Made by a program: the position numbers and the translations under genes. From Sinorhizobium sojae CCBAU 05684 (GTDB lineage: Bacteria > Pseudomonadota > Alphaproteobacteria > Rhizobiales > Rhizobiaceae), in NCBI RefSeq assembly GCF_002288525.1, contig NZ_CP023067.1:806001-870000 (forward strand): DNA of 64,000 nt, in the 5' to 3' direction. Positions 5,917 to 30,103 of this stretch are shown here, piece after piece (within the stretch, counting starts at the first letter, position 1; each line of letters begins with the position of its first letter). Below the pieces are notes generated by a model. It saw nothing but the letters and a program-made list of their open reading frames with translations, ran no database searches and was not told the DNA's origin.

Positions 5917-6983
5917 AGGGCGAGGCTGCCCTTGTAGATCGTGCCGGCGGCGTCTTCCTCGCGCGCGACCATGCGGCCGAGCGTGAAGACCGTTTCGCCC
6001 TCGCCGGCGAGCACTGCCGCGACGCGGTCTGCCTCCGCGGACGGCACCACGGCGATCATGCCGACGCCGCAATTGAAGGTGCGCAGCATCTCGTTGGCGG
6101 CGACGCCGCCGGTCCTGGCGAGCCAGGAGAAGACGGCCGGCGGCTTGATGGCGCCGAGGTCGATCTCCGCGGCAAGATGCTTCGGCAGCACGCGCGGGAT
6201 GTTTTCCGGAAAACCGCCGCCGGTGATGTGGGCGAGCGCCTTGATCGCTCCGGTCTCGCGGATTGCCTTCAAGAGCGGCTTCACATAGATGCGGGTGGGC
6301 GTCATCAGGAGGTCGGCGAGCGTACCCTCGCCAAAGGGCGCCGGCGCGTCCCAGCCGAGGCCGGACAGTGTGACGATCTTGCGCACCAGCGAATAGCCGT
6401 TCGAATGCACGCCGGAGGAGGCGAGCCCGAGGATCACGTCGCCTTCGGCGATATCACCGGCCGGAAGCAGCTGCCCGCGTTCGGCAGCCCCCACGGCGAA
6501 GCCGGCAAGGTCGTAGTCGCCGCCGGAATACATGCCCGGCATCTCGGCCGTTTCCCCGCCGATCAGCGCGCAGCCCGCTTCGCGGCAGCCGGCGGCAATG
6601 CCGGCGACGATCGCCGCGCCCTGGTCCGGATCGAGCTTTCCGGTGGCGAAATAGTCGAGGAAGAACAGGGGTTCCGCACCCTGCACGACGAGGTCGTTGA
6701 CGCACATGGCCACGAGGTCGATGCCGACCGTATCGTGCTTGTCGGCGTCGATGGCGATCTTGAGCTTGGTGCCGACCCCATCATTGGCCGCCACCAGGAC
6801 CGGATCGCTGAAACCCGCGGCCTTTAGGTCGAAAAGCCCGCCGAAACCGCCGATCTCGCCATCGGCGCCCGGACGTCGGGTCGAGCGCACATGCGGCTTG
6901 ATCTTCTCGACCATCAGGTTGCCGGCATCGATATCCACACCCGCGTCGCTATAGGTGAGGCCGTTCTTGCCCGACTGGCTCAT
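5913..6983 (-). CDS. purM: phosphoribosylformylglycinamidine cyclo-ligase PurM
   Basis: 356 aa, the standard length. It starts [20 protein letters not shown]; the DAGV segment and the following GGFGGLFDL and NDGVGTKLK motifs are the PurM signature for FGAM and ATP binding. It converts FGAM to AIR. The start at 6983 is preceded by a GGAG ribosome-binding site, and in-frame upstream ORF sequence is RIME-derived. The order purM-purN with ATGA coupling is common in Proteobacteria. Confidence 0.96.
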
Positions 6984-7141
6984 GCTCGTTCTCCAAGGCT
7001 CGTCGTATTTGCGGATGCGATTGGCACGGTCGGCCGGGGAGTGCAAGCGCGCATGCCGGCGGGCGCGCTGTTTTTTCACCTTTTTGCCGATGGGCAGCGT
7101 CAATGACCGGCCCGGCGGGTGAAGTTCCGGCGTTCTGGCCC

Positions 7142-7241
7142 ACAGCGCCGCCGTCTCATCAGACGCGCAAAGATCGCTGCAGGGCTTTGAATTGCTGCAT
7201 GTCTTCTCAAATCGAGGGCGATATAACGAGACATGCAGTAG
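7142..7241 (+). repeat. RIME-like mosaic palindrome, modules A+B
   Basis: Within the 330-bp gap between purM and the permease gene. Module A (acagcgccg, then a degenerate left arm and AGACGCGC right arm) is followed by module B, a hairpin with outer arms CTGCATGTCT and AGACATGCAG (7195-7238). The same two-module arrangement recurs at 27961-28054. The family is the rhizobial intergenic mosaic element type. Nothing else is recognised in this gap. Confidence 0.8.
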
Positions 7242-7313
7242 CCGGGCTTGACCTCGGCGCGCGCAGGACCCTATCTCGTCCACATGGATGCACGGGCCGG
7301 GGCAGGAAGTGAC

Positions 7314-8435
7314 ATGAGCAATCGGGTGAGCGGTTTGGGACTTCGGCGCCAGATCTTTTTCTGGATGCTCGTTCTTGCCACTTTCATCCTGTTCCTGATG
7401 GTCTTCAGCTCGATCCTGCTGCCGTTCCTCGCCGGCATGGCGCTTGCATATTTCCTCGACCCCGTCGCGGATCGACTGGAGCGCCTGGGCCTCAGCCGTC
7501 TGATGGCGACGATCGTCATTCTCGCCACCTTCATCGTCATCTTCGCGCTGTCCCTAGTGATCATCATTCCGCTGGTCTTCTCGCAGGCCGCTGATTTCAT
7601 CCAGAAGATGCCCGGCTACATCACCAGGCTGCAGGCGTTCCTGACCGACTCGCAGGCGATGCTGCTGCCGGACTGGCTCGGCGACGAGATGACGGCCATA
7701 AAGCAGAATTCGGCCAAACTGCTGGAGCAGGGGGCAAGCTTTCTCGGCACGCTGTTCCAGCAGATCTGGAACTCGGGCATGGCACTTCTGGACATCTTGT
7801 CGCTGTTCATCATCACGCCGGTCGTTGCCTTCTACCTGCTGCTCGACTGGGACCGGATGATCGAGACCGTGGATAGCTGGATACCGCGCGATCACGTCGA
7901 GGTAGTCCGCCAGATCGCCCGGGACATGAACGCCACCATTGCCGGCTTCGTTCGCGGGCAGGGCTCGCTCTGTATCATTCTCGGTCTCTATTATGCCATC
8001 GGCCTGTCGCTCGTCGGCCTCAACTTCGGACTGCTGATCGGGCTCTTTGCCGGCATGATCAGCTTCATCCCCTATGTCGGCTCGCTGGTCGGCCTTGTCC
8101 TGGCGGCCGGCGTCGCCATCGTCCAGTTCTGGCCGGAATATTTCTGGATCGTGCTCGTCCTCGTCATCTTCTTCAGCGGCCAATTCCTTGAAGGTAACGT
8201 TCTCCAGCCGAAGTTGGTCGGCAAAAGCGTCGGTCTCCATCCGGTCTGGCTGATGTTCGCGCTGCTTGCCTTCGGCGCGCTGTTCGGCTTCGTCGGCCTA
8301 CTGGTGGCGGTGCCGGCCGCAGCCGCGATCGGCGTCCTTGTTCGCTTCGGCATCCAGCGATACCTTGAAAGCGACCTTTATCACGGGCATAGGACAGCCG
8401 CGAACCAGCCGTCGAAGGGCGAGGAGCCCCGCTGA
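7314..8435 (+). CDS. AI-2E family transporter / PerM-type permease
   Basis: 373 aa from ATG 7314, chosen because AGGAAG lies 5-10 bp upstream; an in-frame ATG at 7284 would add ten residues. Several TM helices are visible, including an N-terminal pair, a broad amphipathic middle region, and the conserved C-terminal stretch [18 protein letters not shown] ... [19 protein letters not shown] typical of UPF0118/PerM. The substrate is unknown. It lies 21 bp upstream of hdaA, an arrangement usual in Rhizobiales. Confidence 0.87.
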
Positions 8436-20764: not shown

Positions 20765-22090
20765 CTAGATATTGGCGAGCAGGTCGTTGATGCGGGACTC
20801 CATGTCTGCCAGAGCTGCGTCGATCTCCTTCTGACCGGTGACCGCCGCATTCATCTCCTGGCCGATGATGTCTTGGATGGCGAACTGGCGCTGCACGGTC
20901 GACGGGAGCGGCGTACCAAGCGTTGCGACGGCCGAGATCGTGTCGCGATGCGGCAGTGCCTTGAACTCCTCCGACCCAAGCACGGCCTTCACCGCCGGAA
21001 GGTGGCCGGTGCGCGACCATTCGAAGTCGTTGTCGTTGAAGAACTTCAGGAATTTGCCGATCGCCGCTTCTTCCTCTGGTGTGCGATCCTTCTGCGAGAC
21101 GGCCCAGCTGTGGCCGTCCGCATATTGCGCCTTTTTGCCGGAGAAGAGCTGCGGGTAGGGATAGACGGCATAACCGCCCGCATTGAGTGCCGTCCCGGGC
21201 GTTTCCGAGGAGGCCGTATAGTCGCCGATTACCCATGTGCCGTTCAAATGCACACCGCCTTCGCCGGCGAGGAAGGCATTGATGCCGGCGGCATAGTCCA
21301 TGTCCTTTGTCGTGTAGTCGTTGTCGTAGATCGCCTTGTACATTTCGAGGACCTTTTTGGCCTCGGGCGTATTGATTTTCACCAGCTTGGGATCGGCAAA
21401 GGCACCGGAATCCTGCTGGAAGAGATAGGTGTAGAGGTTGCGAGTATAGAGCGCGACCTCGTTCGCCAGGTTCTGGACGAAATAGGGTTTGTCGGTCTTC
21501 TCCTTGAACTCTTTGGCCTGGGCCATCAGTTCATCGACGCTGGTCGGCAGCTTCGGCGTGCCGTCGGCATTGACGAGGCCGGCCTTTTTGAAGAGGTCCA
21601 TGTTGATGTGGAACAGCATCGTCCAGTTGTCGATCGGCAAGGCATAGATCTGGCCGTCCTTCGTGACGCCGCTGAGGCTTGCTTCGGTGAAGTCTGAGGG
21701 TGCGACGCCGACCGACTTCAGAAGGTCGTCGAGCCCCATCAGCAGGCCCTTGGACTGGTAGTCGCCGAGGACGGAATGGTGGATCGTCACGATGTCCGGC
21801 GGGTCGCCGGCTGCAAACTGCGCCGTGAGCTGGTCGTAACCCGGCCATTCGACGGTGGTCACGGTCACGTGCACGTCTGGATTGTCGGCATTGAACTTGT
21901 TGATCAGCGACGTCATGATGCCGCATTCTCCGACGGCCTTGCTGGCATCGGTGTTGGTGCCGAATTCCGCATCACACGCCCCGAAGAAGCGCTGCACGGT
22001 GAGTTCCGTTGCCGCCAGCGCGGGCGCCGCCGCGGTGAGGGCGAGCACCGAGGCGGCCGTCAGCATAAATCTGCGCAGGGTATGCGTCAT
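20765..22090 (-). CDS. ABC transporter sugar-binding protein (family 1)
   Basis: 441 aa from the second ATG (22090), which has AAGGAGGAG at the right spacing; the ATG at 22096 is too close to it. The signal peptide MTHTLRRFMLTAASVLALTA ends at APALAA, so the protein is periplasmic. Family-1 features include FNADNPDVHVTV, GDPPDIVTIHH and LAGEGGVHLNGTWVIGDY. It delivers the sugar to the two permeases encoded upstream. Context with a GH51 enzyme suggests arabinose or arabino-oligosaccharides. It is the last gene of the operon, which is unusual for a binding protein. Confidence 0.88.
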   Translation of the reverse strand: MTHTLRRFMLTAASVLALTAAAPALAATELTVQRFFGACDAEFGTNTDASKAVGECGIMTSLINKFNADNPDVHVTVTTVEWPGYDQLTAQFAAGDPPDIVTIHHSVLGDYQSKGLLMGLDDLLKSVGVAPSDFTEASLSGVTKDGQIYALPIDNWTMLFHINMDLFKKAGLVNADGTPKLPTSVDELMAQAKEFKEKTDKPYFVQNLANEVALYTRNLYTYLFQQDSGAFADPKLVKINTPEAKKVLEMYKAIYDNDYTTKDMDYAAGINAFLAGEGGVHLNGTWVIGDYTASSETPGTALNAGGYAVYPYPQLFSGKKAQYADGHSWAVSQKDRTPEEEAAIGKFLKFFNDNDFEWSRTGHLPAVKAVLGSEEFKALPHRDTISAVATLGTPLPSTVQRQFAIQDIIGQEMNAAVTGQKEIDAALADMESRINDLLANI

Positions 22091-22170: not shown

Positions 22171-23019
22171 TCAGCGCACGGCGGCGCCGGAGACGGCCGT
22201 CACGATGTATTTCTGGAAGAACAGGTAGAGAATAAGGATCGGCGCGCCTGCGAACACCGCTTGCGACATCAGGAAGCCCAGCCCTTCCGATTGCGCGAAG
22301 TTCGTCTGGCTCGAAGCGATGCCGATCGTTAGCGTGTACATTTCCTTCTTCGTGCCGGAGATCAGTGGCCACAAGTAGTCGTTCCACGAAGTCAGAAAGG
22401 TGAAGATCCCGAGGGTCGCCTGAGCGGGCAGCGTGAGCGGTAGGAGCACCTTCCAGAAGATCTTGAAGCGGCTGGCATTGTCGAGCAGTGCTGCTTCGTC
22501 GAGTTCCTTCGGAATGGCGCGAAAATATTGCGTCATCAGGAACACGCCGAAGGGTGCCGCCAGGCCCGGCAGAATCAGCCCGTGATAGGTGTTGTGAAAT
22601 TTCAGCCAGCTGAAGAGCTGGTGGCGGGCGATCAGCACCGCCTGCTCTGGAACGGCAAGTCCGAGCAGCACAATGACGAACAGCGTATTGCGAAAAGGAA
22701 AGTTCAATCGAGCAAAGCCGTAGCCGGCGAGCGATGAGAGGACCAGCGTGAAGATCGTCAGCGTGCCCGAGACGATCACACTGTTCAGGATCCAGCGGAA
22801 GACCGAGGATGTCGCGAGGATATTGATGTAGTTGATGATCGTATACGGCGCATGGAAGACGGAGTTCATATCCGTCATCAACTCCTTGTTGTCCTTGAGC
22901 GACATCGCGACGACCCAGGCGATCGGCGCCATCATCAGAAGCGCAAGGCTGATCGCGAGGATCAGGATGATGCGATCGCCGGTTGAGCGCCCGACCATGC
23001 CGGAAGAGACGGAGCTCAT
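22171..23019 (-). CDS. carbohydrate ABC transporter permease (MalG type)
   Basis: 282 aa, starting at the ATG that overlaps the upstream permease stop (ATGA). Six TM helices are visible, and the EAA loop reads ELDEAALLDNASRFKIFWKV, which couples to the ATPase. It ends 80 bp before the binding-protein gene. Inner-membrane subunit of the same importer. Confidence 0.92.
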   Translation of the reverse strand: MSSVSSGMVGRSTGDRIILILAISLALLMMAPIAWVVAMSLKDNKELMTDMNSVFHAPYTIINYINILATSSVFRWILNSVIVSGTLTIFTLVLSSLAGYGFARLNFPFRNTLFVIVLLGLAVPEQAVLIARHQLFSWLKFHNTYHGLILPGLAAPFGVFLMTQYFRAIPKELDEAALLDNASRFKIFWKVLLPLTLPAQATLGIFTFLTSWNDYLWPLISGTKKEMYTLTIGIASSQTNFAQSEGLGFLMSQAVFAGAPILILYLFFQKYIVTAVSGAAVR

Positions 23020-23951
23020 CCTTCTACTCCCTTTCGACGCGAGATGAAGTACTGCGCGAGCGCTGCGATCATGATCAGGATGAAGAGGATCTCGGATGCT
23101 GCGGCGCCAAGCCCGAGATCCCATTTGGTAAAGGCGGCTTCGTAGATATAGAGCACGATCGGCTTCGAGACGTTGTTGGGGCCGCCCTGGGTCATGAGCC
23201 GCGCCTGCCCGAAGAGCTGAAACTGCAGGACGATCTCGATGATGATCACCAGGACGAAGGTGCGCCGGATCGAGGGCAGGGTGATGTGCCAAAGTGTGCG
23301 CCAGCGGCTCGCATTGTCGAGCGCCGCAGCCTCGTAGATCTCCTGAGGCACCTGCTGCAGGGCTGAGAGAAACAGCATCATCGGCAGGCCGATGCACCAC
23401 CATACGGTCGCGATCGCAATCCCGATCATTGTCAGCTTCGGATCGGAGAGGAATGCCGGCGCGGTTGCACCGAACCAGCCGTAGATGGTGGCGAGCAGCC
23501 CGAAATTGCCGATGAAGACAATGCGCCAGATCAGCGTCACGATCGTCACCGACAGCACCGACGACGAGAAGTATACGGCGCGGAGCGCTGCCGCTGTCTT
23601 GGTCTTGCGATTGAGCGCCAGCGCCAGGAAGAGGCCGATGAGGGCAAGCGCGGGAACGGTCAGGAAAACGAAATAAAATGTATTACCGACGGCCTGGAGG
23701 AAGATCTTGTCCCTGAAGAGCCGAAGATAATTGTCGAGGCCGACGAACCGCCCGGTACCGAAGGCATCGGCCTTGTGCAGGCTGAGCCAAATTCCCCAGA
23801 AGAGCGGCACAACGAGCAGCGTCACGAAAAAGAGGAGGTAGGGCGCGATGAAGATGGCGTTGCGCCAAAGCGGTGCATTGATGTTTTGCACCGCCCGCCG
23901 AGCGGCTGCGCTCGCGGTCGAACTGCTGCCGGGGAGGGCCGCCTCAGCCAT
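23016..23951 (-). CDS. carbohydrate ABC transporter permease (MalF type)
   Basis: 311 aa from ATG 23951 (MAEAALPGSSSTASAAARRA), overlapping the ATPase gene by 8 bp. It has six TM segments and the EAA motif QEIYEAAALDNASRWRTLWH. The open frame extends to 24038, but only by reading through the end of the ATPase gene. It pairs with the MalG-type permease downstream. Confidence 0.92.
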   Translation of the reverse strand: MAEAALPGSSSTASAAARRAVQNINAPLWRNAIFIAPYLLFFVTLLVVPLFWGIWLSLHKADAFGTGRFVGLDNYLRLFRDKIFLQAVGNTFYFVFLTVPALALIGLFLALALNRKTKTAAALRAVYFSSSVLSVTIVTLIWRIVFIGNFGLLATIYGWFGATAPAFLSDPKLTMIGIAIATVWWCIGLPMMLFLSALQQVPQEIYEAAALDNASRWRTLWHITLPSIRRTFVLVIIIEIVLQFQLFGQARLMTQGGPNNVSKPIVLYIYEAAFTKWDLGLGAAASEILFILIMIAALAQYFISRRKGVEG

Positions 23952-25044
23952 GGCCCGCCTCCTCATTGTGCCAGGCCCGACCCTCGGTGTTGAAAAGATG
24001 GGTGCGGACGCCGTCGAGCGAAAGCGCAATTTCGTCACCGATCGCGGCGCGGCTATTGCCGATATCCTCGGCGACGATGACGCTTCCCTCCTTGAGGCGA
24101 GTGTAGAGCAGCGTGCGGTCGCCGAGCCTTTCGATCACGTCGACCTTGCCCGTGGTCGTCGCCGTCCCGCCATTCGCGAGCTTGACCGCCTCGGCGCGAA
24201 TGCCGAGCGCGTGCTCGCTGCCGTCAATGCCGGCAAGAGGGATCGCAGTCTGGAGTTCGGTCCCGTCCGGCAATCTGGCTCGAACAAAGCCTCCCTGGTT
24301 CGAAAGGCTGACTGGCAGGAAGTTCATCGTCGGCGAGCCGACGAAGGTCGCGACGAAGCGGCTTGCCGGCCGCGAATAGATCTCCATCGGCGTGCCGATC
24401 TGCTCGACCTTGCGATTGTTCATGACGACAATGCGATCGGCGAGCGTCATCGCCTCGATCTGGTCGTGGGTGACGAAGACCATCGTCGATTTGACGCGGT
24501 TGCGAAGCTGCGCGATCTCGACGCGGGTGCGCACGCGCAGCGCCGCATCGAGATTGGAGAGCGGCTCGTCGAATAGGAAGGCCTTCGGCTCCTTGACGAT
24601 GGCGCGGCCGATCGCGACGCGTTGGCGCTGGCCGCCGGAAAGCTGGCCGGGCTTTCGTTCGAGCAAATGGCTGATCTCCAGCATGCGTGCGGCTTCCGCG
24701 ACGCGGGCGGAAATGACATCGGCCGGCACGTTGATGTTGCGCAGTCCGAAGGCCATGTTGTCGGCGACGGTCATGTGCGGGTAGAGCGCATAGCTCTGGA
24801 ACACCATGGCGATGTCGCGCTTTCCCGGTGGCAGATTGTCGATGCGCTGGCCGTTGATTTCGATCGTTCCCTCGTCGACGCTATCGAGACCGGCGATCAT
24901 GCGCAGAAGCGTTGACTTGCCGCAGCCCGAGGGCCCCAGGAAGACCATGAACTCATTGGCCCTGATCGACAGCGACAGGTCGTCAAGGACGGTCAGCGAG
25001 CCGTAGCGCTTGCTGACATTCTGGATGTCGATTTGGGCCGTCAT
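23944..25044 (-). CDS. sugar ABC transporter ATP-binding protein (UgpC/MalK type)
   Basis: 366 aa. Walker A GPSGCGKST (about residues 37-45), signature LSGGQRQRVAIGRA, Walker B AFLFDEPLSNLDA and the switch His in VTHDQ are all present. A C-terminal TOBE/OB regulatory domain follows. It is the first gene of the four-gene transport operon. A 17-bp operator-like site and a TTGACA hexamer lie in the 226 bp upstream. Confidence 0.93.
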   Translation of the reverse strand: MTAQIDIQNVSKRYGSLTVLDDLSLSIRANEFMVFLGPSGCGKSTLLRMIAGLDSVDEGTIEINGQRIDNLPPGKRDIAMVFQSYALYPHMTVADNMAFGLRNINVPADVISARVAEAARMLEISHLLERKPGQLSGGQRQRVAIGRAIVKEPKAFLFDEPLSNLDAALRVRTRVEIAQLRNRVKSTMVFVTHDQIEAMTLADRIVVMNNRKVEQIGTPMEIYSRPASRFVATFVGSPTMNFLPVSLSNQGGFVRARLPDGTELQTAIPLAGIDGSEHALGIRAEAVKLANGGTATTTGKVDVIERLGDRTLLYTRLKEGSVIVAEDIGNSRAAIGDEIALSLDGVRTHLFNTEGRAWHNEEAGHG

Positions 25045-25261
25045 CCTGCCGCTCCGCTCGGGCAGTCAGAACAGGAAAACCTGATAACGTTTGGCCGAAA
25101 CACGCCGGACGCCTTGATTTTCGCGTCGTTTGGCGAGCCCCGACCCGTCAGCGATAGTGCCAAAACAGAAGCGCTGGCTCCCATCTTCTCCTCCTAGCGG
25201 CACGTCGAGCCTGTCCCCGACATTAAATCATACAATTATGCTGTCAACCATTTACGATACA

Positions 25262-25278
25262 TATCAAATATTATGATA
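25262..25278. promoter_or_regulatory. candidate operator A of the arabinofuranoside regulator
   Basis: TATCAAATATTATGATA, an inverted repeat with TATCA/TGATA arms, lies over the last codons and stop of the arabinofuranosidase gene, 218 bp before the transporter ATPase start. A TTGACA hexamer for a minus-strand promoter is at 25242-25247. It matches sites B and C, which lie before abfA and the regulator gene. Confidence 0.55.
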
Positions 25279-26791
25279 GTAATCCTTGCAGTCGAATCAT
25301 GCGATAGGAGAGGGGCGGAATCCTGGCGCCGAGTCTCCCATCCGAAGCCACGGCACCGTCTCCCTTCCTCGGGACCACGTTGTCCGGCCTTTTGGCCGTG
25401 TTGGTGACGTTGATGTCCGAATGGGCGAGCACCTGGTCATCGACAATCGTCAGCGCGCCAAACTCGATCAGGCGGACATCGAGATCGAGCGTTTCCGTGT
25501 GGTGCCGGTTGACGATGAAGAAGGTGATGGCTTTTTGGTCCGCGTCGTGGACGGCCGAGACATCGAGATACGGCACGTCGCCGAGACCGTCGACCCGATA
25601 GGTCGGGCTGTCGACATGCAGCTTGAGCGCCGTCCCGCGGCCAAAGACCGAGGCGAAATAATAGGGATAGAAGATCGTCTGACGCCAGGCCGGGCCGCCC
25701 GGCACCGTCATGATCGGAGCGATGACGTTTACAAGTTGTGCCAGACAGGCGATCTTCACGACGTCGGCGCGGTTGATGAACGTGTTGAGGATGCAGCCGA
25801 CCTGAAGCACGTCCTCGAAATTGTAATCATCCTCGAGCAGGGCTGGTGCATGCGGCCAGCCATGGGCGCCCGCAAGTGTCGCCTTGTCGCGCTCCTTGGA
25901 ATGGTACCAGACGTTCCATTCATCGAAAGAGATGTAGATGTCCTTGGTCGAGCGCTTCTTCGCTTTGATATAGGCGATCACGCCGGCGACGGTGCCGATA
26001 TAGTTGTCGAGCTCGATGCTGCGGGCGAGATAGTTGGCGGTGTTCTTGCCGCGGTTCTCGAAATACATATGCAGCGAGATGTAATCGACCTCGTCGTAGG
26101 TGTGATCGAGAACGGTCGCTTCCCACTCGGGGTATGTCGGCATATGCGCATTGGAGGAGCCGCAGACGACGAGCTCGAGCGAACTGTCGAAAGCGCGCAT
26201 CGCCTTGGCGGTCTCGTGCGCCAGCCTGCCATATTCGTCCGCGGACTTGTGGCCGATCTGCCAGGGGCCGTCCATCTCGTTGCCGAGGCACCAAAGCTTG
26301 ACGCCCCAGGGTTCGGCGCGGCCATTGGTGCGACGCTTGTCGCTCCATTCGCTGCCGCACGGGTGATTGACGTATTCGAGGAAGTTGCGCGCGTCGTCGA
26401 GCCCGCGCGAGCCGAGATTGACGGCGAGCATCATCTCGGTGTTGGCGGCCGCGCACCACTCGGCGAATTCATGGATGCCGACCTGGTTGCTCTCTGAGGT
26501 GTGCCAGGCGAGATCGAGGCGGGTCGGCCGGCTCTCCTTCGGCCCGATTCCGTCTTCCCAGTTATAAGCGGAAACGAAATTGCCACCCGGATAGCGGACG
26601 ATCGGAACCTTGAGTTCCCTGACGAGGTCGATCACGTCCCGGCGCATGCCGTTCTCGTCGGCGGCCGGATGGTCGGGTTCGTAGATGCCGGTGTAGACGG
26701 CGCGGCCGAGGTGTTCGATGAAGGAGCCGTAAAGGCGGGGATCGATATCCGAGATAGTATATTTGCTGTGCGCCGTAACCGCAGCCTTCAT
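25271..26791 (-). CDS. abfA: alpha-N-arabinofuranosidase, GH51
   Basis: 506 aa with no signal peptide, hence cytoplasmic. The GH51 TIM barrel carries the acid/base Glu in KLWCLGNEMDGPW and the nucleophile Glu in ISFDEWNVWYH. It starts MKAAVTAHSKYTISDIDPRLYGSFIEHLGRAVYTGIY in part, the family's usual N-terminal motif. It releases L-arabinose from arabino-oligosaccharides after uptake, which fits the ABC importer encoded directly downstream. GGAGGAG precedes the ATG. Confidence 0.93.
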   Translation of the reverse strand: MKAAVTAHSKYTISDIDPRLYGSFIEHLGRAVYTGIYEPDHPAADENGMRRDVIDLVRELKVPIVRYPGGNFVSAYNWEDGIGPKESRPTRLDLAWHTSESNQVGIHEFAEWCAAANTEMMLAVNLGSRGLDDARNFLEYVNHPCGSEWSDKRRTNGRAEPWGVKLWCLGNEMDGPWQIGHKSADEYGRLAHETAKAMRAFDSSLELVVCGSSNAHMPTYPEWEATVLDHTYDEVDYISLHMYFENRGKNTANYLARSIELDNYIGTVAGVIAYIKAKKRSTKDIYISFDEWNVWYHSKERDKATLAGAHGWPHAPALLEDDYNFEDVLQVGCILNTFINRADVVKIACLAQLVNVIAPIMTVPGGPAWRQTIFYPYYFASVFGRGTALKLHVDSPTYRVDGLGDVPYLDVSAVHDADQKAITFFIVNRHHTETLDLDVRLIEFGALTIVDDQVLAHSDINVTNTAKRPDNVVPRKGDGAVASDGRLGARIPPLSYRMIRLQGLLS

Positions 26792-26805
26792 GCTTCTCCT
26801 CCTAG

Positions 26806-26826
26806 TGAATCATAATCCATGATTCA
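26806..26826. promoter_or_regulatory. perfect palindrome in the abfA leader
   Basis: Arms TGAATCAT (26806-26813) and ATGATTCA (26819-26826) flank a 5-bp centre. The palindrome lies 15 bp before the abfA start and abuts operator B. It may be a second regulator site, or an RNA hairpin close to the ribosome-binding site. Confidence 0.45.
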
Positions 26827-26843
26827 TATCACAAATTGAGATA
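26827..26843. promoter_or_regulatory. candidate operator B upstream of abfA
   Basis: TATCACAAATTGAGATA, 36 bp before the abfA start. It shares TATCA at positions 1-5, A at 7 and 9, T at 11 and GAT at 14-16 with operators A and C. Confidence 0.55.
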
Positions 26844-26896
26844 ACTAAGCGGAAGCTTTGACGTTGGTCAAGAGGCGAAATTTGAGCCGTGCGCTC

Positions 26897-27823
26897 TCAG
26901 CGCCTCTGGAGGCGCAACAGGATGTCCTGCCCGTAGTTGCCGAAGCCGCGGCCGAAGATGTTGATACCGCCGGGGTGGCGGGCATTGTCGCGTACGCCGA
27001 CGCGAAGCCGGATTGAGTGATGTTCTTCGACCTTCAGGTCCGCGAGCTTGACATTGGAGATACGCAGCCCATCGACAAAGGCGCCGTCGTCATTGACCCT
27101 GAAGCTCTTGAGCTTGCCGTATTGAGAGCCCTTGAGTTTCCACCAATCGGGCGTGAAAACCCCGCGTTTGTCCCCGAAATCACCCAGAGAGGTCCAGGTG
27201 CCGATGTCGACGCCGTTGACAGTCAGCGTAATGTCGGAAGGCCAGTCGGCACTGGTTCCGGGCACTTCCGAGCTCAACTCCATGACGAATTCGACCTCGC
27301 GAATGCTGGTATTCGTCAGTCGCGCATTGTTGGGAAACTGATACTCGACATAGCCGCGCGTGAACCAGATGAGTGCCGCCTTCATGCGGTCGGGATCGAG
27401 AAACGTGTCGGGGACGTCGAGCAGGCCGATAATGCCGTCGACCGAGCACAGCCCACAAGGGGCGGTCACCTCGACGCTCGTATAGAGCCCGAGTGGCATC
27501 GACACTTCGATCGCGTCCGGTTCGGTTTCCTTGATATCATTTTTGAAGACGACAAGGACCTCGTCATAGACGCTGTGGCAGACCTTCTGGTTGCCCTTGC
27601 GCGCCTTCTGCGCCTCGGTGCGGATGAGCCCCGCCTCCTCCAGCATCTGAACGTTTGTCGACACGCTCGACTGCGGCATATCGAGAATATCGGCAATCTC
27701 GTTGACGTTCAGGGGCCCTTGCTCGTGCAGCAGCTTCAAGACAGCGACCCTTGCGGGGGAGGCCAGCCCTTTCAGAATCGGCATGCCTTCCTCCGGGTCG
27801 ACGACAAGAAAATTGCGACTCAT
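26897..27823 (-). CDS. ArsR-type winged-helix regulator with large C-terminal domain
   Basis: 308 aa, three times the length of a plain ArsR protein. Residues about 14-95 form the winged helix (ILKGLASPARVAVLKLL ... SSVSTNVQMLEEAGLI). The remaining ~200 residues are unrecognised and look beta-rich, with a CGLC motif at 123-126. The adjacent GH51 gene and ABC operon point to a sugar-responsive local regulator, with the C-terminal domain as the likely effector domain; this is inferred. It probably regulates itself through operator C, 44 bp upstream. Confidence 0.8.
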   Translation of the reverse strand: MSRNFLVVDPEEGMPILKGLASPARVAVLKLLHEQGPLNVNEIADILDMPQSSVSTNVQMLEEAGLIRTEAQKARKGNQKVCHSVYDEVLVVFKNDIKETEPDAIEVSMPLGLYTSVEVTAPCGLCSVDGIIGLLDVPDTFLDPDRMKAALIWFTRGYVEYQFPNNARLTNTSIREVEFVMELSSEVPGTSADWPSDITLTVNGVDIGTWTSLGDFGDKRGVFTPDWWKLKGSQYGKLKSFRVNDDGAFVDGLRISNVKLADLKVEEHHSIRLRVGVRDNARHPGGINIFGRGFGNYGQDILLRLQRR

Positions 27824-27866
27824 GGGGCTCCGATCTGATACGAATGACGATCCTGCCGACCTTCTA

Positions 27867-27883
27867 TATCAAAGAATTCGATT
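27867..27883. promoter_or_regulatory. candidate operator C upstream of the regulator gene
   Basis: TATCAAAGAATTCGATT, 44 bp before the regulator start; same 17-bp pattern as operators A and B. The remainder of this 305-bp gap holds a RIME-like element and the groEL terminator. Confidence 0.5.
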
Positions 27884-27960
27884 TATTCAATTGGACGCCA
27901 GCCGGTCCCCGCGAAGACAAGCGCATCGCGATCGCTGGCTTGCCTGACGAGCCCAGGCCC

Positions 27961-28128: not shown

Positions 28129-30103
<1,975 letters not shown>

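What the first reader, a model, noticed from the sequence alone, without database searches (positions are those of the whole stretch)
25262..27883. Three matching 17-bp operators define a local arabinofuranoside regulon
Seen directly: TATCAAATATTATGATA (25262-25278), TATCACAAATTGAGATA (26827-26843) and TATCAAAGAATTCGATT (27867-27883) share TATCA at 1-5, A at 7 and 9, T at 11 and GAT at 14-16. They lie upstream of the ABC importer, the GH51 enzyme and the ArsR-like regulator, the last two only 36 and 44 bp before the start codons. Inference: the 308-aa regulator binds all three and derepresses uptake and hydrolysis of arabino-oligosaccharides when sugar is present. I know of no described operator for this regulator type.
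Basis: partly seen in the sequence, partly recalled or inferred. Interest (0 to 1): 0.72.

Follow-up and report, generated by a model that had tools for sequence, protein, structure and literature searches.

The report
Conserved switch for plant-arabinoside uptake genes
A short, nearly symmetric DNA motif marks the promoters of a regulator, an arabinose-releasing enzyme and a sugar importer in root-associated bacteria, and its conservation across many relatives, even where the importer has been replaced by an unrelated one, indicates that it is the binding site of that regulator; a similar regulator-enzyme pair was predicted earlier in a heat-loving bacterium.

Summary
The three 17-mers are real, correctly placed and not chance: the literal pattern occurs at 4 places in 6.09 Mb, the fourth inside a coding ORF. 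A motif learned without supervision only from more distant relatives (TATATCAGAAATTCTGATATA) ranks three window sites top: before the regulator, GH51 enzyme and importer. In 29 close loci held out of training, sites precede 29/29 regulators, 27/29 GH51 and 28/29 importer genes, with 1 of 111 sites elsewhere. In Devosia the operator precedes a different, Opp-type importer. Regulator and enzyme occur in exactly the same 35 of 100 genomes. Most likely an ArsR-type autorepressor with a possibly CBM-like sensor domain, released by arabino-oligosaccharide; the homologous R. leguminosarum system is rhizosphere-induced but not arabinose-induced (published). In the 51-55% clade the regulator's own site is missing. 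An ArsR-type regulator of abfA with predicted sites (ArbA, Caldicellulosiruptor, 2021) is a precedent, so this is a new variant of a known kind. Binding, repression and inducer remain untested.

The parts
26897..27823 (-). Regulator, 308 aa: ArsR-type winged helix (about residues 14-92) plus an unannotated beta-rich C-terminal domain (about 98-308)
   Evidence: Pfam HTH_20/HTH_5 above cut-off on residues 20-69; no Pfam match at E<=1 for the window's C-terminal part; AlphaFold models
27865..27885 (.).
   Evidence: Matrix score 18.0, best in the window; site >13 before 29 of 29 clade A regulators
27863..27868 (-). Predicted -10 TATAGA of the regulator promoter, overlapped by the operator
   Evidence: Conserved in clade A alignment; hexamer assignment inferred
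27885..27890 (-). Predicted -35 TTGAAT of the regulator promoter, 16-bp spacer
   Evidence: Conserved in clade A alignment; assignment inferred
25271..26791 (-). GH51 alpha-L-arabinofuranosidase, 506 aa
   Evidence: NF051901 'arabinosylfuranosidase ArfA' 894.5 bits against cut-off 625; PF06964
26806..26826 (.).
   Evidence: Score 17.5, second best in the window
26825..26845 (.).
   Evidence: Score 4.6 alone; pair spacing conserved: 56 of 73 GH51 promoters score >5 at -19
26866..26871 (-). Predicted -35 TTGACC of the GH51 promoter
   Evidence: CTTGACC present in the 29 rows of the clade A alignment; assignment inferred
26843..26848 (-). Predicted -10 TTAGTT (TTTATT in most relatives), 17-bp spacer, touching operator A
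   Evidence: Clade A alignment; assignment inferred
25260..25280 (.).
   Evidence: Score 17.0, third best in the window; site >13 before 28 of 29 clade A importer operons
25243..25259 (-). Putative weak importer operator 2 (TATCGTAAATGGTTGAC), 19 bp on, running into the -35
   Evidence: Score -4.6 in the window; at the same place 13-16 in three Pararhizobium-like loci, L107-L109
25242..25247 (-). Predicted -35 TTGACA of the importer promoter
   Evidence: Conserved in clade A alignment; assignment inferred
25041..25184 (-). 47-codon leader ORF, stop overlapping the ATPase start (ATGA)
   Evidence: Kept in 28 of 29 clade A loci with 47 or 48 codons
23944..25044 (-). ABC ATPase, MalK/UgpC type
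   Evidence: NF008653 461.9 bits against cut-off 432
23016..23951 (-). ABC permease 1
   Evidence: BPD_transp_1; start chosen from ORF and synteny
22171..23019 (-). ABC permease 2
   Evidence: BPD_transp_1; start chosen from ORF and synteny
20765..22090 (-). Extracellular sugar-binding protein
   Evidence: SBP_bac_1; start chosen from ORF and synteny

Best explanation
The sites are operators of the 308-aa ArsR-type regulator. As a dimer it binds a 17-21 bp palindrome (TATATCAGAAATTCTGATATA). At its own promoter one operator fills the -35/-10 spacer (autorepression). At the GH51 promoter two operators 19 bp apart cover the -10 end to about +30 (blocking RNA polymerase, possibly cooperative). 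At the importer promoter one strong operator lies about 57 bp before the predicted start and a weak second one touches the -35. Imported arabino-oligosaccharide (rather than free arabinose) binds the C-terminal beta-sandwich domain, which may be carbohydrate-binding-module-like, and releases the repressor, so uptake and GH51 hydrolysis rise together. Shown by computation: motif, conservation, spacing, promoter context, gene co-occurrence. Inferred: protein-DNA binding, repression, transcription starts, inducer, sensor role of the C-terminal domain.
For: Unsupervised motif from 102 upstream regions of 52 loci with regulator identity <82% ranks three window sites first in 64 kb: 18.0, 17.5, 17.0, next 11.0; maxima in 50 Markov-1 sequences average 10.6, largest 16.4. 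Held-out clade A (29 loci, 640,969 bases): sites >13 before 29/29 regulators, 27/29 GH51, 28/29 importers; 1 of 111 sites elsewhere. 200 column-shuffled matrices: mean 0.18, largest 10, of 29 regulator upstreams, against 29. Two further clades outside the training set: GH51 7/7 (65-66% identity) and 13/14 (51-55%), regulator 7/7 and 0/14. Pair spacing of 19 bp. Full-length regulator and ArfA-type GH51 in exactly the same 35 of 100 genomes. Transporter swap: in 13 loci the extra site lies 119-146 bp before an SBP_bac_5 (Opp-type) importer gene. Sites also in S. meliloti, Roseibium, Roseomonas and R. leguminosarum loci. Literature: pRL110281, next to pRL110282 (putative arabinofuranosidase), is up in all rhizospheres, its mutant has a competitive index of 0.44 on pea, and it is not arabinose-induced (PMC3333776, passages); an ArsR-type regulator lies next to that GH51 gene in pRL11. 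C-terminal model: weak matches to CBM36, CBM22, CBM8 and lectin folds.
Against: No binding or expression data were found for this protein. The strong importer site is centred near -57, also a usual place for an activator. No importer site >13 in 18 of 23 training-side loci with this ATPase (one of the 23, L120, has it far from GH51). Read-through from GH51 may serve there where the gap is 50-67 bp (8 loci), but in 9 others it is 78-399 bp. In the 51-55% clade the regulator comes last in the cluster and has no site >10 before it in 14 of 14 (S. meliloti L172: 11.2), so autoregulation is not general. In Bosea nothing over 5.1 was found, in Deinococcus 5.3. In the mixed 63-76% genomes only 3 of 6 GH51 promoters pass 13. 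With the inner 17 columns alone, other genome places score like the real ones (ours rank 1, 4, 7, 8 of 50). C-terminal model: pLDDT 75, TM on the query 0.27-0.44 in the 50 rows listed, so the fold assignment is weak. Cys82, Cys123 and Cys126 (a CxxC) are invariant in 49 sequences, which leaves metal or thiol sensing open.
Confidence: 0.72

Rival explanations
1. The operators belong to the regulator, but it acts as an activator or a dual regulator at the importer promoter.
For: The strong importer operator is centred about 57 bp before the predicted start, upstream of the -35.
Against: Operators at the GH51 and regulator promoters overlap -10, spacer or start; ArbR sites in C. bescii lie in 5' UTRs or over promoter elements and were read as repression against mapped starts (PMC8579813, passages).
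Confidence: 0.12
2. Another, unlinked transcription factor (for example a general arabinose or pentose regulator) binds these palindromes.
For: Binding by the linked regulator is not shown; the motif is a generic ATC-N9-GAT palindrome; in the 51-55% clade the regulator gene has no site of its own.
Against: A site precedes the regulator gene itself in 77 of 81 loci (29/29 and 48/52) and follows the regulator-GH51 pair across transporter swaps and gene orders; the pair co-occurs perfectly in 100 genomes.
Confidence: 0.07
3. The regulator binds these operators but senses a metal or redox state through its invariant cysteines, sugar control coming from elsewhere.
For: ArsR-type winged helix; Cys82, Cys123 and Cys126 invariant in 49 sequences.
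Against: No Cys in residues 1-81, where ArsR metalloregulators carry their recalled helix motif; score just under the metalloregulator cut-off; fixed pairing with GH51 and sugar importers.
Confidence: 0.05
4. The motif is only AT-rich promoter sequence kept by descent, not an operator.
For: It overlaps promoter elements, and clade A upstream regions are related.
Against: Same palindrome in non-homologous promoters (regulator, GH51, two unrelated importers), fixed 19-bp pairing, and 1 of 111 sites elsewhere in held-out loci.
Confidence: 0.04

Closest known systems
ArbA (also written ArbR), ArsR-family TF next to abfA in Caldicellulosiruptor (PMC8579813; passages seen)
   Same: ArsR-type regulator beside an alpha-L-arabinofuranosidase gene; predicted conserved operators before it; predicted repressor of arabinoside catabolism
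   Different: Divergent from abfA there, co-directional here; three sites in one intergenic region there, three promoters including an importer here; its sequence and motif letters were not seen, so homology of the whole protein is untested
Rhizosphere-induced pRL110281-pRL110282 system of R. leguminosarum 3841 (PMC3333776; passages seen)
   Same: GH51 enzyme, importer and, in the record, an adjacent ArsR-type regulator; the same operator before regulator (23.7) and GH51 (19.9, 14.2)
   Different: Importer is PepT (Opp) type, here CUT1; no operator was described in the passages read
ArsR/SmtB metalloregulators and NolR (PDB 4omy, listed)
   Same: Winged-helix DNA-binding domain; palindromic operator (recalled)
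   Different: 308 aa with a 210-residue C-terminal domain; no Cys in the helix region; sits with a sugar system
AraR-type arabinose repressors of the GntR, LacI or NrtR families
   Same: Local control of arabinose-related genes
   Different: Unrelated DNA-binding protein families (recalled; GntR-type AraR in passages, NrtR-type in the listing)

Membership tests
ArsR/SmtB family | ArsR-type winged helix-turn-helix | tested here: met
   PF01022 40.2 bits against cut-off 22; PDB profile and fold matches to ArsR proteins over about the first 90 residues
ArsR/SmtB metalloregulator (NF033788) | Score over the curated cut-off | tested here: not met
   54.7 against 55 bits
ArsR/SmtB metalloregulator | Cys metal motif in the recognition-helix region (recalled) | tested here: not met
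   No Cys in residues 1-81 of the window protein; invariant Cys at 82, 123 and 126, so other metal sites are not excluded
ArbA kind (ArsR-type regulator of abfA) | ArsR-type gene adjacent to an arabinofuranosidase gene | tested here: met
   78 of 80 named loci (misses L129 and L137)
ArbA kind (ArsR-type regulator of abfA) | Conserved predicted operators before the GH51 gene | tested here: met
   27 of 29 held-out and 48 of 50 training-side
ArbA kind (ArsR-type regulator of abfA) | Homology to C. bescii ArbA over its full length and same motif | not tested
   ArbA sequence and motif were not available; a 40% identical homologue over 96% of the length was seen on a Bacillota plasmid
GH51 ArfA (NF051901) | Score over the curated cut-off | tested here: met
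   894.5 against 625 bits
CUT1 ABC importer | SBP_bac_1, two BPD_transp_1 permeases, MalK/UgpC-type ATPase | tested here: met
   that these parts define CUT1 is recalled
Carbohydrate-binding module (as sensor domain) | CBM beta-sandwich fold | tested here: inconclusive
   Foldseek E about 5e-4 to CBM36, TM 0.33-0.38 on the query; no convincing sequence match

The most novel reading that the evidence does not exclude
A family of sugar-sensing ArsR-type repressors in which a fused carbohydrate-binding-module-like domain, in place of the usual metal pocket, reads arabino-oligosaccharides directly, acting through 19-bp-spaced operator pairs, and carried as a fixed pair with one GH51 enzyme while the importer under its control is exchanged between unrelated transporter families.
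Probability: 0.35. Interest if true: 0.6.

Novelty: new variant of a known kind. Interest (0 to 1): 0.42.

Why it matters
It gives a testable operator and regulon for an uncharacterised ArsR-type protein family found in many Rhizobiales, and ties it to a published rhizosphere-fitness locus of R. leguminosarum whose inducer is not known from the passages read. It adds a second lineage of sugar-linked ArsR-type regulators to a family best known for metals, and could give a plant-arabinoside reporter for roots.

Tried and rejected
Rejected: chance occurrence. Rejected: the literal 16-mer as the consensus. Rejected, by analogy only: L-arabinose as the most likely inducer. Tried: genome-wide extra members. 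WATCANNNNNNNTGATW gives 7 places: 2 are ours, the other 5 score -3.0 to 10.6. The 10.6 place (L154) has a 14.7-scoring neighbour 247 bp away that lies inside a 151-codon ORF on the other strand; its meaning was not followed up. The looser WATCNNNNWNNNNGATW gives 87 places (control 12), of which only the first 50 were listed and scored on 17 of 21 columns; ours rank 1, 4, 7, 8, so further regulon members are neither found nor excluded. The EM also converged on a second, weaker solution, TCAntAAATCnGATTTanTGA, not pursued. Deinococcus (43% identity) shows no convincing site: best 5.3, 118 bp before the regulator; Bosea neither: best 5.1, inside its regulator gene. Paper searches cover open-access PMC only; two searches found no paper, the others listed papers, of which I opened five, as passages only; RegPrecise itself could not be searched. 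PMC8424115 and PMC3616900 (passages) were not relevant.
Full report
OBSERVATION. The three 17-mers lie where stated. The fourth place is inside a 560-codon ORF, so it is unlikely to be an operator.

NEIGHBOURHOOD. The regulator carries an ArsR-type winged helix at residues 20-69 and falls just under the cut-off of the metalloregulator model (54.7 against 55). The GH51 enzyme matches NF051901 'arabinosylfuranosidase ArfA' at 894.5 bits, and the importer has SBP_bac_1, BPD_transp_1 and UgpC-type components. The nearest named relatives are Ensifer/Sinorhizobium and Rhizobium strains; that the window is Sinorhizobium/Ensifer is an inference from this.

INDEPENDENT MOTIF. From 80 named loci fetched with the regulator (229 stretches encoded a relative, the best 80 were kept) I took the 52 with regulator identity under 82%, so that the window's own clade had no part. 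I ran an unsupervised palindromic EM on 102 regulator and GH51 upstream regions. Of 40 random starts the six best were printed; three gave TAtATCAGaAaTtCTGATaTA, with an expected count of 99.9 sites in 102 regions. Scanning the 64-kb window with it puts the regulator site (18.0), an unreported GH51 site at 26806-26826 (17.5) and the importer site (17.0) first; the next place scores 11.0. In 50 simulated sequences the maxima average 10.6 and the largest is 16.4.

HELD-OUT TESTS. In the 29 clade A loci (window and L071-L098; 640,969 bases) sites over 13 lie before 29 of 29 regulators, 27 of 29 GH51 genes and 28 of 29 importer operons, and 1 of 111 sites lies elsewhere. On the training side the counts are 48 of 52, 48 of 50 and 5 of 23, with 15 of 130 sites elsewhere. 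Of those 15, 13 lie 119-146 bp before an importer gene of a different family, SBP_bac_5, in 12 Devosia loci and one unnamed Rhizobiales locus. The whole Opp-type gene set was checked by Pfam in one of them, L122; the others were found by tblastn with its binding protein, which hits 16 loci, 13 of them with the site. The remaining two are L136, whose contig ends soon after, and L148, unexplained. So the operator stays when the transporter is exchanged. Six mixed genomes of 63-76% give 6 of 6 regulators and 3 of 6 GH51 genes.

ARCHITECTURE. In GH51 promoters a second site stands 19 bp upstream of the best one: mean score 5.6 at -19 against a median of -25.9 over the other offsets tried, and 56 of 73 promoters over 5. 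At the importer +19 is also the top offset, more weakly (mean -2.0, 3 of 33 over 5). At regulator promoters +19 is the top offset too, but low (mean -10.3, 1 of 77 over 5), so those carry essentially one site. Aligned clade A promoters show CTTGACC-N17-TTTATT (TTAGTT in the window) followed by the operator pair and the ribosome-binding site at GH51, and TTGA.T-N16-TATA.A with the operator between the hexamers at the regulator. At the importer the strong site lies just upstream of a conserved TTGACA. Hexamer and start assignments are inferences.

LINKAGE. Among 100 genomes (own included) a full-length regulator and an ArfA-type GH51 gene (E<=1e-120) are found in exactly the same 35. The full-length set was read from the match rows; the other 38 genomes with a match there have only short matches in the winged-helix part. 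The pair is adjacent in 78 of 80 named loci. In the 51-55% clade the regulator is the last gene of the GH51-importer cluster and has no site of its own. In a sample of 398 Pseudomonadota genomes 11, own included, have the regulator at E<=1e-20, all in the same class. By tblastn 260 of 72,556 plasmid records match at E<=1e-8, 258 of them over at least 80% of the query, including Deinococcus and Enterococcus ones. Of seven annotated plasmid loci scanned, S. meliloti, Roseibium, Roseomonas and R. leguminosarum show sites before regulator, GH51 or importer genes (best 12.6 in Roseomonas, 16.9-23.6 in the other three). Deinococcus and Bosea do not. A 13.2 place 67 bp before the Enterococcus regulator gene lacks the ATC/GAT arms in a sequence with several places over 10, and I do not interpret it.

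LITERATURE. PMC3333776 (passages): pRL110281, a PepT binding protein next to the putative arabinofuranosidase pRL110282, is elevated in all rhizospheres, its mutant has a rhizosphere competitive index of 0.44 on pea, and it was not induced by arabinose. The pRL11 record shows an ArsR-type regulator next to that GH51 gene, and the matrix finds sites before regulator (23.7) and GH51 (19.9, 14.2), the three best of the 45-kb stretch. That this regulator is pRL110283 is my reading of gene order. PMC4149787 (one passage) lists pRL110283, 'putative DNA-binding protein', at +2.0 in a table about praR. [quoted passage not shown] ArbR is read there as a repressor from mapped starts.

SENSOR DOMAIN. The C-terminal domain has no Pfam match for the window sequence at E<=1 and no PDB sequence relative of note. 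AlphaFold models are of medium confidence (mean pLDDT 77.1 and 75.0). Foldseek's first rows are GH87 and CITase enzymes, hinokiresinol synthase, CBM36, CBM8 and CBM22, with lectins and some toxins further down, all with low TM-scores on the query. A carbohydrate-binding sensor is therefore plausible, not established.

VERDICT. The regulon is strongly supported by computation. The mechanism (autorepressor, oligosaccharide-induced) is likely but untested. It is a new variant of a kind predicted once before.

Noticed in passing
window 25041-25184 (-): A 47-codon ORF (MGASASVLALSLT...SDCPSGAAG) with a strong ribosome-binding site fills the importer leader, and its stop overlaps the ATPase start as ATGA. 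It is kept with 47 or 48 codons and the same overlap in 28 of 29 clade A loci. Protein constraint is weak (mean pN 0.347, pS 0.441 over 264 pairs of 24 sequences).
   Followed up: partly
about 34 bp before the ATPase start in clade A relatives (e.g. L077 12760): A further operator-like sequence inside the small ORF scores up to 17 in many relatives but is not among the 25 best places of the window; it may be an operator or a by-product of the conserved codons.
   Followed up: partly
L122 12756 and 12 further loci: The same operator stands before an unrelated Opp-type importer (SBP_bac_5), a transporter swap under one regulator.
   Followed up: yes
window 27446-27580 (-), regulator residues 82, 123, 126: Invariant Cys82 and a CxxC (123-126) in the regulator in 49 sequences.
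   Followed up: no
L070 (G004:C71) 6275-8199: Broken pieces of a second GH51-ATPase-regulator set (GH51 in two pieces, regulator from residue 171 on) in a genome with another set that looks intact.
   Followed up: no
window 28129-29859 (-): A groEL-like chaperonin gene lies directly upstream of the regulator gene (identity by eye).
   Followed up: no
L154 1499-1766 (near an end of contig C1): Two operator-like places, 10.6 and 14.7, 247 bp apart; the second lies inside a 151-codon ORF.
   Followed up: partly
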